A DNA stretch of 64,000 bases from Terebella lapidaria (Eukaryota > Annelida > Polychaeta > Terebellida > Terebellidae): the NCBI GenBank assembly GCA_949152475.1, contig OX424563.1, positions 19,565,001 through 19,629,000 on the forward strand. Direction: 5' to 3'. A program made the position numbers and the translations under genes. The notes under the pieces are model-generated. The model did not search any database. It worked only from the letters and a program-made list of their open reading frames with translations, and was not told the origin of the DNA. Every line of letters starts with the position of its first letter. The stretch's first letter is position 1. Positions 29,489 to 54,066 of this stretch are shown one piece after another.

Positions 29489-31106
29489 GGCCATATCGTG
29501 ATATAGTCCCCGCCGGGGAGTATTTCCCTGCACTGGTTAGGGCATGCGCATTTGACATCTGTGGTGTATGCTGTGTATAGTTGGCTGTGCATGCACCAAA
29601 CCATGAAATATATCCCTTTATAGTACAATATGCCGACAGCTACGACGTTTTGATAATTTGCATTGCCGTTTATTCCGTTTTCAGTCACGGAATGAGGGGC
29701 ATAGACATATTTAGGCTTGGGATTTTGTATCCCAATATATACACTTCACATTGTTACAGTGTATACCAGGCCTATATTTTCGGACTCACATTCTTTCTTT
29801 ATTCTAACCCAATCATATCCGTCGCCCTCTTTAGCTTCTAAACTAATGGTGTCTCCTATATATTACTCGTGATATAGTCCCCGGGGACTATTTCCCTGAG
29901 CCCTGAAATACACCCAGTACCAATCCGACGTTGATCTCTACCCCCAAAAAACAACTCCCCATTTTTTACTCTAACCCCATCATATCCGTCGCCCTCTTTA
30001 GCTTCTAAACTAATGGTGTCTCCTATATATTACTCGTGATATAGTCCCCGGGGACTATTTCCCTGAGCCCTGAAATACACCCAGTACCAATCCGACGTTG
30101 ATTTTTACCCCCAAAAAACAACTCCCCATTTTTTACTCTAACCCCATCATATCCGTCGCCCTCTTTAGCTTCTAAACTAGTGGTGTCTCCTATATATTAC
30201 TCGTGATATAGTCCCCGGGGACTATTTCCCTGAGCCCTGAAATACACCCAGTACCAATCCGACGTTGATTTTTACCCCCAAAAAAACAACTCCCCATTTT
30301 TTACTCTAACCCCATCATATCCGTCGCCCTCTTTAGCTTCTAAACTAGTGGTGTCTCCTATATATTACTCGTGATATAGTCCCCGGGGACTATTTCCCTG
30401 AGCCCAGAAATATGCCCAATACCAATCCAACGTTGATATTTACCCCCCAAAAAAACATCGCCCCATTTTCTACTCTAATCCCATCATATCCGTCGCCCTC
30501 TTTAGCTTCTAAACTAATGGTGTCTCCTATATATTACTCGTGATATAGTCCCCGAGGACTATTTCCCTGAGCCCTGAAATACACCCAGTACCAATCCGAC
30601 GTTGATTTTTACCCCCAAAAACAACTCCCCATTTTTTACTCTAACCCCATCATATCCGTCGCCCTTTTAGCTTCTAAACTAGTGGTGTCTCCTATATATT
30701 ACTCGTGATATAGTCCCCGGGGACTATTTCCCTGAGCCCAGAAATACACCCAGTACCAATCCGACGTTGATTTTTACCCCCAAAAAAACAACTCCCCATT
30801 TTTTACTCTAACCCCATCATATCCGTCGCCCTCTTTAGCTTCTAAACTAGTGGTGTCTCCTATATATTACTCGTGATATAGTCCCCGAAAACTGTACGAA
30901 CCTATTTCATTCTCATTCGTGAAATCGTCCCCGGGGTCTATTTCACGAGTAATATGTAGACACGGAATAAAGTGCAACATTATGACGAGGCTTATTCCGT
31001 TGAAATAATAACACCATTTTAATATTTCGATCCAATTTTTATATATCGAAAGTCTTTGGGTGGTGGGAGACGGTATCCCCGGCGGGGACTATATCACGAT
31101 ATGGCC
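29489..31106. mobile_element. 1.6-kb TIR element expanded by an internal satellite
   Basis: Ends are GGCCATATCGTGATATAGTC and its complement GACTATATCACGATATGGCC, flanked by a perfect 8-bp duplication CTGTTTAC (29481-29488 and 31107-31114). More than 1 kb of the interior is a tandem array whose unit carries a copy of the element's own end. No transposase. The 8-bp duplication is compatible with hAT, Merlin or Zisupton-type mobilisation, but the ends fit none of these clearly. Confidence 0.88.
29814..30890. repeat. 167-bp satellite inside the TIR element
   Basis: Seven anchor points of CATATCCGTCGCC recur at spacings of 167, 167, 168, 169, 166 and 167 bp. Each unit contains CGTGATATAGTCCCCGGGGA, close to the TIR sequence CGTGATATAGTCCCCG of the host element, and TTACCCCCAAAAA. 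The copies are very similar, so the expansion looks recent. Confidence 0.92.
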
Positions 31107-43275: not shown

Positions 43276-43382
43276 TAATTTGTTACTTATTGTATCCCCC
43301 GAACAAAGTTCGGCGGATACTATGGATTTGGCTTCGTCGTCCGCGTCCGTGTCCGCGTCCGCGTCCGCAGAGATTTTCTTGT

Positions 43383-43735
43383 GAACGCGCTACAGGCCGC
43401 AATTCTCATCCGATCACCATTATTTTTTGCAGGCACATATATAATGGTAAGATCCCGACACCAATCGATTTTGGTTGCTGTGGCAACTGAATTGGTCGTT
43501 TGGGGACACATTTTGCATTGAAAACAGCCTGTTTGAGACACATGGCTTGTGAACGCGCTATAGGCCGCAATTCTCTCCCGATCACCATTATTTTTAGCAG
43601 GCACATATATTATGGTAAGATCCCGACACCAATCGATTTTGGTTGCCGTGGCAACTGAATTGGTCGTTTGGGGACACATTTTGCATTGAAAACAGCCTGT
43701 TTGAGACACATGGCTTGTGAACGCTCTACAGATGG
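43383..43735. repeat. 168-bp tandem repeat, two copies plus
   Basis: GAACGCGCTA starts at 43383 and 43551, with a third partial start at 43719 (spacing 168 and 168). The copies share CCAATCGATTTTGGTTGC and CATTTTGCATTGAAAACAGC and are nearly identical. A short GCGTCC microsatellite precedes the array. Confidence 0.9.
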
Positions 43736-43983
43736 CAATTTTTGACGAATCTCGATAATATTTGGAAGTGTTGTTGGGAAGGGCTGTCACACGAAACCAA
43801 TCGTTTTTTAGAATGATCATATAAATATTAATATGTTAACAGCCTAACTTATTACAGAATTTTGAAATATCCATTTTGATATGTACGATCATTCCAATAG
43901 CCTGTACAGTGGAAGGTAATGACACTGGTTTCTTGTTCAGAATGGAGAACTGAAGTTTTCAGTGAAAACAGGACAATATTACT

Positions 43984-44860
43984 GAATAAGTTAACATTAG
44001 TTTTATTAGTTAAGTCTATTATTGTCCACAATAAAAATAGTTAAGACGAGAAACGTTTATTATTAAGCTCAACAAGGTAAAGGTTTTGTCCAGTACAAAT
44101 TTCATGGGTGTAACTGAATAAGTTAACATTATTTTTAATAGTTAAGTCTATTATTGACCACAATAAAAATAGTTAAGACAAGAAATATTTATTATTAACC
44201 TCAACAAGGTAAATGTTTTGTCCAGTACAAATTTCATTGGTGTAACCGAATAAGTTAACATTATTTTCACTAGTTAAGTCTATTATTGACCACAATAAAA
44301 ATAGTTAAGTCTATTATTGACCACAATAAAAATAGTTAAGATGAGAAATATTTATTATTAAGCTCAACAAGGTGAAAGTATGTCCAGTACAGATTTCATG
44401 GGTGTACTGAATAAGTTAACATTATTTTTACTAGTTTAGTCTATTATTGACCACAATAAAAATAGTTAAGACAAGAAATATTTATTATTGGGCTCAACAA
44501 GGTAAAGATTCTGTCCAGTAGACATTTTATGTCTGTAACCAAATAAGTTAACATTTTTTTTGCTAATTAAGTCTATTATTGACCTCAATAAAAATAGTTA
44601 AGATGAGAAACAATTATTATTGAGCTCAACAAGGTTAAGGTTTTGTCCGGTAGAAATTTCTGGGTGTAACCGAATAAGTTAACTTTATTTTTACATGTTA
44701 AGTCTATTATTGACCACAATGAAAATAGTTAAGACAAGAAATATTTATTATTGGGCTCAACAAGGTGAAGGCTTTGTCCAGTAGAGATTTTATGGCTGTG
44801 ACCAAATAAGTCAACATTATTTTTTTGCTAGTTAAGTCTATTATTGATCACAATAGCTTT
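43984..44860. repeat. 132-bp satellite, about 6.7 copies
   Basis: The anchor GAATAAGTTAACATT recurs at spacings of 132, 132, 161, 132, 131 and 132 bp; the 161-bp unit has an internal duplication of about 30 bp. Units share CTATTATTGACCACAATA and GCTCAACAAGGT. Confidence 0.9.
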
Positions 44861-45780
44861 TTATGAAAACATTGATCAACTTTTACTTTGAATTTCAACT
44901 TGAGACCATGTTTGGCTCAAATTATGAGTTAGAATATAACTTATGGTGAAAAATTCGATCTGGCTCCAATTTTGTCATCTTGAAATGCAGTTTTGGTCAA
45001 CTTTTACTTTGAATTTCAACTTGTTTGGCACATATTATGAGTCGAAATATAACTTATGGTGAAAAGTTCGATCTGGCTCCATCTTGAAATGCAGTTTTGG
45101 TCAATTTTTAGTTTGAATTTCAACTTGAAACCAAGTTTGGCACATATTATGAGTTAAAATATAACTTATGATGAAAAGTTCGATCTGGCTCCAATTTCTT
45201 CATCTTGAAATGCAGTTTTGGTAAACTTTTAGCTTGAATTTCAACTTGAAACCAAGTTTGGCACATATTATGAGTTAAAATATAACTTATGACAAAAAGT
45301 TCTATCTGGCTCCAATTTCGTCATCTTGAAATGCAGTTTTGGTCAACTTTTACATTGAATTTCAACTTAATACCAAGTTTGGCACATATTATGAGTTGAA
45401 ATATAACTCATGGCGAAAAGTTTGATCTGGGTCCAATTTCGTCATCTTAAAATGCAGTTTTGGTCAACTTTTAGTTTGAATTTCAACTTGAAATCAAGTT
45501 GGGCAGGTATTATGAGTTAAAATATAACTCATGACGAAAAGTTTGATCTGGCTCCAATTTTGTCATCTTGAAATGCAGTTTTGATTACCTTTTACTTTGA
45601 ATTTCAACTTGAAACCATGTTTGGCACATACATATATTATGGATCGAAATATAACTTATGGTGAGAAGTTCAATCTAGCTCCAATTTTGTCATCTTGAAA
45701 TGCATTTTTGGTCAAATTTTACTTTGAATTTCAACTTGGAACCAAGTTTGTAAAATATTCTGAGTTGAAATATAAATAGG
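44861..45780. repeat. 121-bp satellite, about 7 copies
   Basis: The anchor TCATCTTGAAATGCA recurs at about 121-bp spacing, with one shorter unit. Units share TTGAATTTCAACTTGAAACC and TTCGATCTGGCTCCAATTT. It follows directly after the 132-bp array. Confidence 0.9.
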
Positions 45781-51279: not shown

Positions 51280-52570
51280 CCACAGAACATGAAGAGTTCT
51301 GGCTTATGGGGCCCTTCAGTGGGCCCCAGACCCCCGGCCCAATTGTGCAACTCCTCTTCTACATTTGTTGTTTTTTTACAATTTTTTTCAGAAAATGGTA
51401 ATCAATAACTTTTTAGTGAAATTTATTCTCAGGAAAGGCCACTAAATTAATTCTGACGTAAAAGAAAGGCTCTGACTTCTGGGGCCCCCGGCCCAAATAT
51501 GCAGCTCCTTTTTTTACATTTTTTAAAACAAATTTTTCAGTGTATGGTAATCAATGACTTTTAAGTGCAAGTTATTTCCAAGAAAGGCCACACAATTAAT
51601 GCAGAACATAAAAAAGGCTATGACTTCTGGGGACCTTCAACGGGCCACAGAACTTTCCTTCTACATTTTTTTTACAAACTTTTTGGTTTGATGTTTATCG
51701 ATGAATTTTCAAGTGCAGTTTATTCCTAGGAAAGGCCACAAAATTAATTCAGAGCATAAAAAAGGCTCTGGCTTATGGGCCCTTCAGCAGGCCCCAGAAA
51801 ACCCCAGCGGAGACGAGCTCGCTTTGTTTCTATTTTTGGCATTAAATATAAAAGTAGGGCGATCCATGGTATTCAAGTGGAAGTCATACCAAGGAGATGC
51901 CATCAACTTAACACTGAACATAACAAAGACTCTTGCTTCGAGGTCTATTGAGCGGCCCCAGACCCCCACCACGACAGGCTCGCTCCACTCCATAATTTTT
52001 TATGTACCAGGGGCATGAAGTGGAATTTATACCCAAGAGATGACAGGAAGCTACCACAGGACATAAAATAGTGTTACAGGGTTCGGAAAATCCACTTGCC
52101 CGAGAGGGGATTCGAACCCAGGACCCTACGAACAGTAGTCCAACACTCTACCAGGTGAGCTAAAGGGATATCCCACTAGCCGAGCTAGTAGGAATGCTAA
52201 CTACCAAATTGGGCGAACCCCGAATGGGCCCTGGCACATACTCCCCCCTCATCGGAAATCTCGTCCCCGAGATTTGGGCAAGTCCCACATTGGGCGCCAA
52301 TGTTACAGGGTTCGGAAAGATCCACTTGCCCGAGAGGGGATTCGAACCCAGGACCCTACGAACAGTAGTCCAACACTCTACCAGGTGAGCTAAAGGGATA
52401 TCCCACTAGCCGAGCTAGTAGGAATGCTAACTACCAAATTGGGCGAACCCCGAATGGGCCCTGGCACATAAGGATCTGGTTTCTGGGGCCCTTGCGCGGG
52501 CCCCAGACCCCACGCCGTATAATGTTGGACCCCCTCTTTTCAAATTCATGGATCCGCCCCTGGTCACGCA
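51280..52570. repeat. Tandem array of 150-175-bp units, interrupted
   Basis: The phrase GGCTTATGGGGCCCTTCAG and relatives recur near 51300, 51474, 51622, 51770 and 51930, with AGGAAAGGCCAC and GAACATAAAAAAGGCT in between. The next unit resumes at about 52475 (TTCTGGGGCCCTTGC) after the miniature LTR element at 52072-52468, which inserted into the array. Units are diverged. Confidence 0.75.
52072..52468 (-). mobile_element. Miniature LTR element (TRIM-like) with tRNA-like LTRs
   Basis: Read on the minus strand: 5' LTR 52301-52468, internal region 52239-52300, 3' LTR 52072-52238. The LTRs begin TGTGCCAGGG, end CCCTGTAACA and look almost the same. One base after the 5' LTR stands TGGCGCCCAATGTGGGAC, which fits a primer-binding site for lysine tRNA. 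Just before the 3' LTR is the purine run GATGAGGGGGGAG. Only 62 bases separate the LTRs and there is no coding capacity, as in terminal-repeat retrotransposons in miniature. Each LTR holds a tRNA-like segment with an A-box-like TTAGCTCACCTGGTAGAG and a B-box GGGTTCGAATCCC. It looks structurally whole for its class and young. No clear target duplication was found. Confidence 0.78.
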
Positions 52571-52920
52571 CACATACACAGATCACGCGCGCATATATAC
52601 ATGTACATATTCCAAGGGGACCACACACCCTACCTCCATCACGTGGACAGTGCATGATACGGCGTCATCACTGACCAATCAGACACGGCCCCACAACTTT
52701 AGGCGCGAAAATACTTGCACCGTTGTTCTGAGATATAATTCAATGTGAGAAGACTATGGAATTCCCATTACGAACCGCGAGCTGCGACCTGCGTACTGCG
52801 AGCTGCGATCTATAAACTGATACGGACATATGTGACCTGCGAGCTATAACTGCGACCTGCGAGGTGAAAACTGCGACCTGCGAGGTGAAACTGCGACCTG
52901 CAAGGTCAAACTGCGACCTA

Positions 52921-53488
52921 TACTCTGATTTTTCTAACTTGTTTACACCGGTTTTCGACGATATCTTTGCGATGCTAAATGGTATCGTTCTATAACTTGG
53001 CACACTTCACATTGGAGACAAACGGCAATTTTCTGCCAAATTTCAGATTTCTATCGCAATAATTGAAGAAGTTGGCAATCTATCCCAATGTTAAATTTCA
53101 CACAAAAACAGGATCTCGAGAATCTGAGCTCATTCGAGGATTTGATCCTGTTTACATCCATCAGGATTCGAAGTATTGGTGTAACTTTATACCAGATGAC
53201 ACATTGGTGTGTATTCTACACAAACATGTTGATTTTGAAAGATTGCACTAGTACAAAACCGAGCAAATGCACGAAGTTGTGGGCGGACCCAGAAATCAAA
53301 TGACAGGGCTAAATTTAACATTGGGGTATATTGCTAACTTTTTCAATTTTCGTGATAGAAATATGAAATTCGGTAAATGATTGCCGTTTGACTTCCAGGT
53401 GAAGCATGTCAAGTTATAGAACGATAGCATTTAGCATCGCAAAAATATCAGCGAAAAACTGTGTAAACGAGTTAGAAAAATCAGAGTA
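52921..53488. mobile_element. 568-bp TA-flanked MITE, copy 2
   Basis: Ends TACTCTGATTTTTCTAAC and TTAGAAAAATCAGAGTA, flanked by TA (52919-52920 and 53489-53490). Inserted within the outer MITE. Closest in layout to copies at 4044-4610 and 63225-63791. Confidence 0.87.
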
Positions 53489-54066
53489 TACTAGACTTTT
53501 TTCGTGTCGGGGTTATTTCGAGGGTGTTTCGGGGGTACTTCGGGGTGAAGTACCGCGGTCAAGTGAGTAGGGGTTTTTGCGCATTGAAGCGTGGCGAATA
53601 TAACTCAGATTCATTAATCAGCGCCTGTTAGGCCACACAAAATAGAACCGAACTCTAGCAGAGGTATGCTATACTGAATTTTCTTTTATCTCTAATCAGG
53701 ATTGAAAGGGTGTCAGACGGATTAAATGAGATGTTTCCCGTTGTCGCGCAGTGTTCATGGGAAGCATACTAAAGTCGGCCCAAATACCGTACGTTATTCC
53801 TTAATACTACTCGTCCAATGAAAACATACCATTTAATCCGTCTCGCACCTTTTCAATCCTTCTTGAATATAGAGGAAGGCGCAGGATTTGATACTTGGGC
53901 GCATGTAGCGCAGCTTACTTTTTCTTCTAAATTCAATGAAAATTTAAAATGTGCCAGATTGATTAAATATGGTATACATCAAATGGGTGAGTAGTATTAA
54001 CAGATTGGGCCCTACAGGCTTAGACAACCCTGAACATATCACCTTTTGTAAATGTTATTGCTAAAA

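What the first reader, a model, noticed from the sequence alone, without database searches (positions are those of the whole stretch)
52072..52468. LTR element of about 400 bp whose LTRs contain a tRNA-like Pol III promoter
The two near-identical LTRs, a lysine-tRNA-type primer-binding site and a purine tract identify a TRIM-like element with an internal region of only 62 bp. Each LTR carries an A-box-like and a perfect B-box sequence in tRNA spacing. Plant Cassandra elements carry 5S rRNA promoters in their LTRs; a tRNA-derived equivalent in an animal would be a parallel case in which a miniature element may be transcribed by Pol III. I see the structure directly; Pol III use is inference.
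Basis: partly seen in the sequence, partly recalled or inferred. Interest (0 to 1): 0.72.

Follow-up and report, generated by a model that had tools for sequence, protein, structure and literature searches.

The report
Helenus-type miniature LTR retrotransposon in annelid
A 397-base jumping element in a worm genome carries a tRNA-like promoter in its end repeats; the kind was published in 2024, but here some copies also preserve pieces of the tRNA that primed their copying.

Summary
Window 52072-52468 is LTR-internal-LTR (167 + 62 + 168 bp), sense on the minus strand, with a tRNA-Lys primer site, a purine tract and tRNA-type A and B boxes in each LTR. It is a dispersed family: of 41 copies fetched, 29 of 38 distinct sites have exact 4-bp target duplications (control 14 of 1406), and solo LTRs exist; the window copy has no duplication. 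The kind is published: Kojima 2024 named tRNA-LTR miniature elements Helenus (animals: 4-bp duplications, probably Gypsy-mobilised) and Pol III-type TRIMs TRIMp3. So this is a new member of a known kind; the host looks like an annelid, a phylum not among that paper's six animal phyla. Not seen in print by my searches: at 19 loci this family's LTR is fused to the reverse complement of mature tRNA-Lys-CTT including CCA, for 38-76 nt, a few inside insertions with 4-bp duplications. These read as integrated reverse-transcription intermediates in which plus-strand synthesis ran into the primer tRNA. A T4-T6 run follows the tRNA-like part in 110 of 131 scored LTRs, and 5 of 11 truncated LTR pieces start 3-12 nt before box A, both fitting Pol III. 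Transcription itself could not be tested.

The parts
52301..52468 (-). 5' LTR of the element (sense = minus strand), 168 bp, TGTGCC...GTAACA
52072..52238 (-). 3' LTR, 167 bp, 99.4% identical to the 5' LTR
52284..52300 (-). primer-binding site TTGGCGCCCAATGTGGG; nt 2-17 complementary to the 3' end (with CCA) of the host's tRNA-Lys-CTT
   Evidence: tRNA-fused copies
52256..52275 (-). 8-bp hairpin AAATCTCG-GGGA-CGAGATTT before the PPT; Gypsy X of the same genome has AAATGTCG-GGA-CGACATTT at the same place (compensatory change)
52239..52250 (-). polypurine tract GAGGGGGGAGTA
52381..52392 (-). A box TAGCTCACCTGG of the 5' LTR (LTR position 77-88)
52338..52348 (-). B box GGTTCGAATCC of the 5' LTR (LTR position 121-131); mean column conservation 0.978 against 0.951 over the LTR
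52151..52162 (-). A box of the 3' LTR
52108..52118 (-). B box of the 3' LTR
52087..52090 (-). T4 run after the tRNA-like part of the 3' LTR, candidate Pol III terminator (T5 in 94 of 131 scored LTRs; only T3, 52316-52318, in the 5' LTR here)
52395..52404 (-). GGGATATCCC palindrome (LTR position 65-74); inferred RNA 5' end at or just after its start
   Evidence: inferred from truncated copies
51281..52067 (+). flank with diverged repeats, in part spaced about 148 bp, that the element is inserted into (not part of it)

Best explanation
A Helenus-type TRIM (TRIMp3): a non-coding LTR retroelement with a tRNA-derived type-2 Pol III promoter in each LTR, moved in trans by tRNA-Lys-primed Ty3/Gypsy elements of the same genome. 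Proposed cycle: Pol III starts about 12 nt before box A in the 5' LTR (inferred), reads leakily through the first T-run (inferred) and stops at the T-run of the 3' LTR (inferred), giving an R-U5-PBS-hairpin-PPT-U3-R RNA. A Gypsy particle copies it from tRNA-Lys-CTT, and integrase inserts the DNA with a 4-bp target duplication (primer site and duplications shown, helper inferred). Plus-strand synthesis sometimes runs past A58 of the primer tRNA; some of these products are rescued by microhomology or template switching and still integrate, leaving LTR-tRNA fusions (fusions shown, route inferred).
For: Structure. Dispersed copies. Exact 4-bp duplications at 29 of 38 distinct sites, cross-pair control 14 of 1406; of 33 copies with two scorable LTRs, 7 pairs are 100% identical. 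Solo LTRs with 4-bp duplications: L116, L118, L132, L137 and one triplicated site L123-L125 (36 new loci). Real tRNA-Lys-CTT genes, 204 places at up to 3 mismatches; those read in L147 and L148 have no encoded CCA. LTR-tRNA fusions include TGG, the complement of CCA: of 20 loci chosen for an extended PBS, 14 carry this family's LTR, two of them partial and one at 83% identity. L089 and L095 are such fusions with 4-bp duplications. L057 has 38 nt of tRNA, then a GGGA microhomology back into the internal region, identical LTRs and an AAAA duplication. T4-T6 run in 110 of 131 scored LTRs. Two tRNA-Lys-primed families with RT domains are present; their 4-bp duplications (CTTA, AAAA) I read by eye.
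Against: No expression data: Pol III use is untested. A-box conservation (0.945) is no higher than the LTR mean (0.951), so the copies show no selection on it. The window copy lacks a target duplication and its 5' LTR has only T3. 9 of 41 copies lack an exact 4-bp match. No element with coding capacity and this family's own 3' end turned up except the chimera L082: all 43 hits of the 3'-end pattern have Helenus-like TGTG, so the helper is inferred. The start-site inference is post hoc and falls on a palindrome that may break by itself. Most LTR-tRNA fusions show no duplication at the end of the tRNA part.
Confidence: 0.87

Rival explanations
1. A TRIM whose LTR merely contains a decayed SINE or tRNA insert; transcription is by Pol II and the A and B boxes are passengers.
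For: Box A is not conserved above the LTR average; no cloverleaf is found by ARAGORN or Rfam; the two tRNA-Lys-primed relatives have AATAAA in the LTR and no A/B-box pair there by a simple motif scan of six loci.
Against: Box B columns are conserved at 0.978 against 0.951 overall; a T4-T6 run sits directly after the tRNA-like part in 110 of 131 scored LTRs, while only 8 such runs start before LTR position 140 in 113 distinct LTRs; the kind recurs with conserved boxes in many hosts (PMC10886601).
Confidence: 0.2
2. A tRNA-derived tandem repeat or SINE, not an LTR element.
For: Tandem units exist (L040, L054, L058, L078).
Against: Fixed 4-bp duplications, TG...CA ends, PBS and PPT at the right places, solo LTRs and fusions to the mature primer tRNA.
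Confidence: 0.02
3. The 6-kb element L082, which has the same LTRs and Gypsy domains, is the autonomous parent and the TRIM is its internal deletion.
For: L082 has both LTRs at 93.5% identity to the window LTR, the PBS, 49 nt of the 3' internal end, a CATA/CATA duplication and zinc-knuckle, RT, RNase H and integrase-zinc domains.
Against: Its body after the tRNA part is about 60 nt of another Gypsy (X) backwards, then X forwards at 99.2% over 1682 nt, with a 0.9-kb inverted repeat; X has its own LTR, and no tRNA-Lys PBS was found in the X pieces scanned. No second copy of the combination was found (both limited). It reads as a chimera made by template switching.
Confidence: 0.06
4. The LTR-tRNA fusions come from LTRs inserted beside tRNA genes or from assembly errors, not from reverse transcription.
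For: tRNA genes are known targets of some retrotransposons (titles); about 200 tRNA-Lys genes exist here.
Against: The junction is at the same base and includes the CCA that the genes read lack; the tRNA part ends at different points; none of the 20 loci lies inside the C4 tRNA array; L089 and L095 have 4-bp duplications outside.
Confidence: 0.05

Closest known systems
Helenus (Kojima 2024, PMC10886601)
   Same: TRIM with tRNA-like sequence in the LTR (TRGCY/YGG and GGTTC), PBS and PPT, 4-bp duplications in animals, tRNA-Lys primer in some, solo LTRs, tandem arrays in a zebrafish family, Gypsy as likely helper.
   Different: Host appears to be an annelid, not among the paper's six animal phyla. 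Primer-tRNA read-through copies, chimeras, a T-run after the tRNA-like part and the pre-PPT hairpin are not in the parts of the text that I read (parts 1-5 of 6; figures and supplements not seen).
Cassandra (plants)
   Same: TRIM with a Pol III promoter in the LTR.
   Different: 5S rRNA-derived in Cassandra, tRNA-derived here; Cassandra transcription is experimentally supported, as told in PMC10886601.
biv-TRIM of bivalves (PMC6934838, part 1 of 5 read)
   Same: Short animal TRIM with a short internal domain, solo repeats and tandem copies.
   Different: Terminal repeats of 202-218 bp, no unambiguous canonical PBS; no tRNA-derived promoter is mentioned in the part I read.
Plus-strand strong-stop products of HIV-1 (review PMC13191261, passages read)
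   Same: Plus-strand synthesis copies the primer tRNA and stops at m1A58, psi55, m5U54 or ms2t6A37, or runs to the tRNA end if it is unmodified.
   Different: There these are reaction products in vitro or in cells; here some corresponding lengths are seen integrated in a genome.

Membership tests
Helenus (TRIM with tRNA-like LTR) | Two LTRs around a short non-coding internal region, short total length (311-1263 bp in the paper) | tested here: met
   397 bp, 62-bp internal region
Helenus (TRIM with tRNA-like LTR) | tRNA-derived sequence with boxes A (TRGCY...YGG) and B (GGTTC) in the LTR | tested here: met
   TAGCTCACCTGG and GGTTCGAATCC in both LTRs; no intact tRNA gene
Helenus (TRIM with tRNA-like LTR) | PBS complementary to a tRNA 3' end, and a PPT | tested here: met
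   16 nt to the host's tRNA-Lys-CTT plus CCA; GAGGGGGGAGTA before the 3' LTR
Helenus (TRIM with tRNA-like LTR) | 4-bp target duplications in animals | tested here: met
   29 of 38 distinct sites exact, control 14 of 1406; not met by the window copy
Helenus (TRIM with tRNA-like LTR) | PBS shared with Gypsy elements of the host | tested here: met
   two tRNA-Lys-primed families with RT domains, PBS match of 14 and about 11 nt
Helenus (TRIM with tRNA-like LTR) | Sequence similarity to a published Helenus consensus | not tested
   the consensus sequences are in a supplement that was not available here
TRIMp3 (Pol III-transcribed TRIM) | Transcription by RNA polymerase III | not testable with these tools
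   no RNA or ChIP data; only promoter, T-run and break positions
Cassandra | 5S rRNA-derived LTR promoter | tested here: not met
   no 5S match in Rfam at E up to 1 over 51900-52600
SINE | LINE-type insertion: variable duplications, 3' tail, no LTR/PBS/PPT (recalled definition) | tested here: not met
   fixed 4-bp duplications and LTR ends

The most novel reading that the evidence does not exclude
The genome keeps an integrated record of plus-strand strong-stop synthesis: the primer tRNA-Lys was copied to about 16-17, 21, 22, 38-46, 51-60 and 73-76 nt, which in part matches the modification stops known for HIV-1 (m1A58, psi55, m5U54, anticodon A37, full tRNA). Such products can still complete or terminate insertion by microhomology and template switching. 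The frequent read-through may reflect incompletely modified tRNA-Lys made from the ~200-gene tandem array, and 5'-truncated copies record a Pol III start site about 12 nt before box A.
Probability: 0.5. Interest if true: 0.7.

Novelty: new member of a known kind. Interest (0 to 1): 0.52.

Why it matters
The element extends Helenus to what appears to be a new phylum. The more useful result is that its many small copies act as a recorder of reverse transcription: they show the primer tRNA, how far it was copied, and a template switch with another Gypsy. That makes two questions testable from genomes alone: which helper moves a TRIM, and how the tRNA modification stop works outside retroviruses.

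Tried and rejected
I first took L082 as the autonomous parent because of its matching ends. Rejected after searches showed its body to be a rearranged piece of another Gypsy with other LTRs. I looked for coding elements with this family's 3' end: 43 hits at 1 mismatch, all TGTG, one of them (C1:41436885) being L082. I searched for strong-stop foldback dimers with a palindrome pattern (5 places); the three perfect hits belong to a sister tRNA-LTR family and not to this one, so they are not counted; the two imperfect ones were not read. L084 is a duplicated segment with a solo LTR, not an element. Conservation of box A gave no support. 5'-truncation starts: 8 of 11 pieces fall at LTR 65-86 (binomial P 0.0003 under a uniform model over 108 positions) and 5 of 11 at 65-74 (P 0.002) (starts). 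This was post hoc; near-complete pieces L114, L117 and L133, the duplicate L145, and rearranged L014, L026, L115, L136, L141 and L142 were left out, and one start (133) lies outside the modelled range.

Literature: searches. No paper on genomic LTR-primer tRNA fusions or on Helenus in annelids was seen in these listings, of which only the top rows and abstract starts were shown; subscription papers and preprints are not held. I read PMC10886601 parts 1-5 of 6 plus a term search, part 1 of 5 of PMC6934838, and passages of PMC13191261.

Full report
WHAT IS THERE. The window is G000:C9:19565001-19629000 of a 761.6-Mb genome in 438 contigs. Positions 52072-52238 and 52301-52468 are direct repeats of 167 and 168 bp at 99.4% identity with 62 bp between them. 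The signals read on the minus strand: TGTGCC...GTAACA LTRs, PBS TTGGCGCCCAATGTGGG, hairpin AAATCTCG-GGGA-CGAGATTT, PPT GAGGGGGGAGTA; in each LTR a box A (TAGCTCACCTGG, LTR 77-88) and a box B (GGTTCGAATCC, LTR 121-131). ARAGORN calls no tRNA in the window and Rfam sees only the T-arm (tmRNA model) at 9.7 bits against a gathering score of 47.

IT IS A TRANSPOSED FAMILY. The whole element found 47 matches with only 40 of 679 candidates scored, so this is a lower bound; the internal region gave 40 matches with 40 of 130 candidates scored; a 27-nt LTR core has 304 places at up to 2 mismatches and none for the reversed control. In 41 fetched copies (40 plus the window's; some in tandem or partly rearranged), 32 have an exact 4-bp target duplication; after collapsing two duplicated sites 29 of 38 do, against 14 of 1406 left-right pairs taken from different sites. 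The nine without are L053, L054, L055, L058, L060, L064, L075, L078 and the window copy. LTR-LTR identity runs from 88% to 100% in the 33 copies with two scorable LTRs, 7 being identical, so activity is recent. Of 36 further loci taken from LTR-core hits, solo LTRs with exact 4-bp duplications are L116, L118, L132, L137 and the triplicated L123-L125. The window copy's missing duplication (CTTA/CTAT) could be a decayed TAAG pair, by comparison with the flanking repeats; that is inference.

THE KIND IS KNOWN. Kojima 2024 (PMC10886601; [quoted passage not shown] and proposes TRIMp3 for Pol III-type TRIMs including Cassandra. Each defining feature that I could test fits. [quoted passage not shown]

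THE HOST. Contig C438 carries nad3-trnS-nad2-cox1-trnN-cox2-trnD-atp8-trnY-trnG-cox3 on one strand (gene names by my reading of the frames; ARAGORN also reports a trnF-like hit on the other strand at 4-62), the order that I recall as typical for annelids. The annelid extracellular haemoglobin linker domain (PF16915, taxon range recalled) gives 7 matches above its cut-off and rings in none of the 14 control genomes (those named are prokaryotes, so this control says little). I therefore take the host as an annelid; the species is unknown.

THE PRIMER. The host's tRNA-Lys-CTT gene is found as an exact 73-mer and 204 times at up to 3 mismatches; of the 100 places listed, all but three lie in a tandem array at C4:27.54-27.61 Mb. 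The genes that I read there are followed by TTAC or TTAA, not CCA. The PBS matches the tRNA's 3' end with CCA over 16 nt.

LTR-tRNA FUSIONS. A 20-nt tRNA-Lys pattern gave 46 places. Of 20 loci taken around extended sites (the 19 listed that match only the PBS and tRNA part, and one), 14 have this family's LTR (two partial, one at 83%) and 6 have two other LTR types; in all 20 the LTR is followed by the reverse complement of tRNA-Lys with CCA for 39 to 76 nt by a simple extension count. L102 has one change in the CCA complement. More cases, not counting the spacer T: L114 (56 nt), L146 (54), L078 (45), L082 (42). In the ordinary copies the tRNA match is mostly 16-17 nt, one internal mismatch allowed, with L042 at 21, L053 at 22 and L057 at 38. 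That makes 19 loci of this family with 38 nt or more. L057 rejoins the internal region at a shared GGGA and is a complete insertion with identical LTRs and an AAAA duplication. L089 (LTR, 53 nt tRNA, 15 nt, LTR 3' part) has TGTA duplications and L095 (LTR, 56 nt tRNA, inverted LTR end) has CACA duplications; L090 holds 73 nt of tRNA in an otherwise complete element but without an exact duplication, and L096 resembles L095 without one. L082 has CATA on both sides. The remaining fusions have no duplication at the end of the tRNA part, so their right ends are unexplained. HIV-1 plus-strand synthesis stops at m1A58, psi55, m5U54 or ms2t6A37, or runs to the tRNA end when unmodified (PMC13191261, passages). 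On my numbering (tRNA of 76 nt with CCA) the 21 and 22 nt copies end just before positions 55 and 54, a 39 nt copy (L105) just before 37 and the 38 nt copy one short of that; each of these is a single copy, and most fusions end beyond (41-60 nt), so the match is partial.

TEMPLATE SWITCHING. L082 has this family's ends, 42 nt of tRNA, then about 60 nt of Gypsy X reversed and X forwards at 99.2% over 1682 nt, an internal 0.9-kb inverted repeat, and 49 nt of this family's 3' internal end, with CATA duplications. X has LTRs identical over the compared 267 nt; a scan of its 5' pieces for the tRNA-Lys PBS found none, and by eye its PBS reads TGGAGCCTCC. The simplest reading is a chimera formed by template switching in a shared particle.

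HELPER. Two tRNA-Lys-primed families leave the same kind of fusion. The L098 type (LTRs identical over the 549 nt compared, CTTA duplications read by eye; RT, RNase H, PNMA-like gag) and the L106 type (AAAA by my reading; RT and RNase H part). The L106 type and X also have, just before the PPT, a hairpin matching the one in the TRIM with a G-C to C-G exchange in the stem (AAATGTCG...CGACATTT in X; one mismatched pair in the L106 type); the L098 type does not show it in the piece read. The L106 type shares most signals (Lys PBS of about 11 nt, hairpin, 4-bp duplication, TGTxxCAGGG start) and is my favoured helper, as inference.

POL III. After the tRNA-like part a T-run of 4-6 occurs in 110 of 131 scored LTRs (8 of 139 could not be scored; duplicates included); before LTR position 140 only 8 runs of T4 or longer occur in 113 distinct LTRs. 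The window has T3 and T4. Box B columns are conserved at 0.978, box A at 0.945, the LTR at 0.951. Truncated LTR pieces start at LTR 65-86 in 8 of 11 cases, including 65, 65, 66, 72 and 74, about where a Pol III start before box A is expected; the GGGATATCCC palindrome there is an alternative cause. Transcription itself was not testable.

VERDICT. New here, as far as the papers listed by my searches show, are the apparent phylum, the tRNA read-through fusions, the chimera, and the pre-PPT hairpin shared with Gypsy.

Noticed in passing
L163, L164, L165 (C8:35177620-35178020, C14:8351940-8352340, C14:9296635-9297035); L014 about 740-865: A sister tRNA-LTR-like family...CCCTTTAGCTCATCTGGTAGA...CCGGGTTCAAATCC...GGTTACA followed in L164 by ATTGGTGGCAGCGGTGGGAT (another PBS); units stand head to head at GGGATATCCC, and L163 has repeated jumps at GCTAAAGGG, like strong-stop cDNA ends.
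   Followed up: partly
G000:C4:27538256-27606429: Tandem array of about 200 near-identical tRNA-Lys-CTT genes in roughly 70 kb (100 of 204 places listed).
   Followed up: partly
L083 (C4:10675000-10683400): A Gypsy element nested between the internal region and 3' LTR of a TRIM copy; its 482-aa gag-side frame scores RRM_1 and weakly PNMA.
   Followed up: no
L121 (C5:14927238-14928008): Palindromic insertion made of two LTR 3' halves, TGTCAC...GTAACA, with a TAGT duplication on both sides: integrase seems to have used two U5-type ends.
   Followed up: partly
G000:C417:44633-46450: A second COX1-like stretch with TGA codons on another contig, in two pieces; a nuclear copy or another organism's mitochondrion.
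   Followed up: no
window 52919-53098 and 53311-53490: 180-nt inverted repeat, 85% complementary, 212 nt apart: looks like a foldback element.
   Followed up: no
window 29798-30887 and 43378-45775: Satellite-like arrays with 167-168, 131-132 and 121-bp units.
   Followed up: no
L089 (C16:25627881-25628600): Between the tRNA-Lys part and the LTR remnant lies GTAAACAGGAGATCC..., which looks to me (recalled) like the 3' half of tRNA-Thr, perhaps a closer ancestor of the LTR's tRNA-like part.
   Followed up: no
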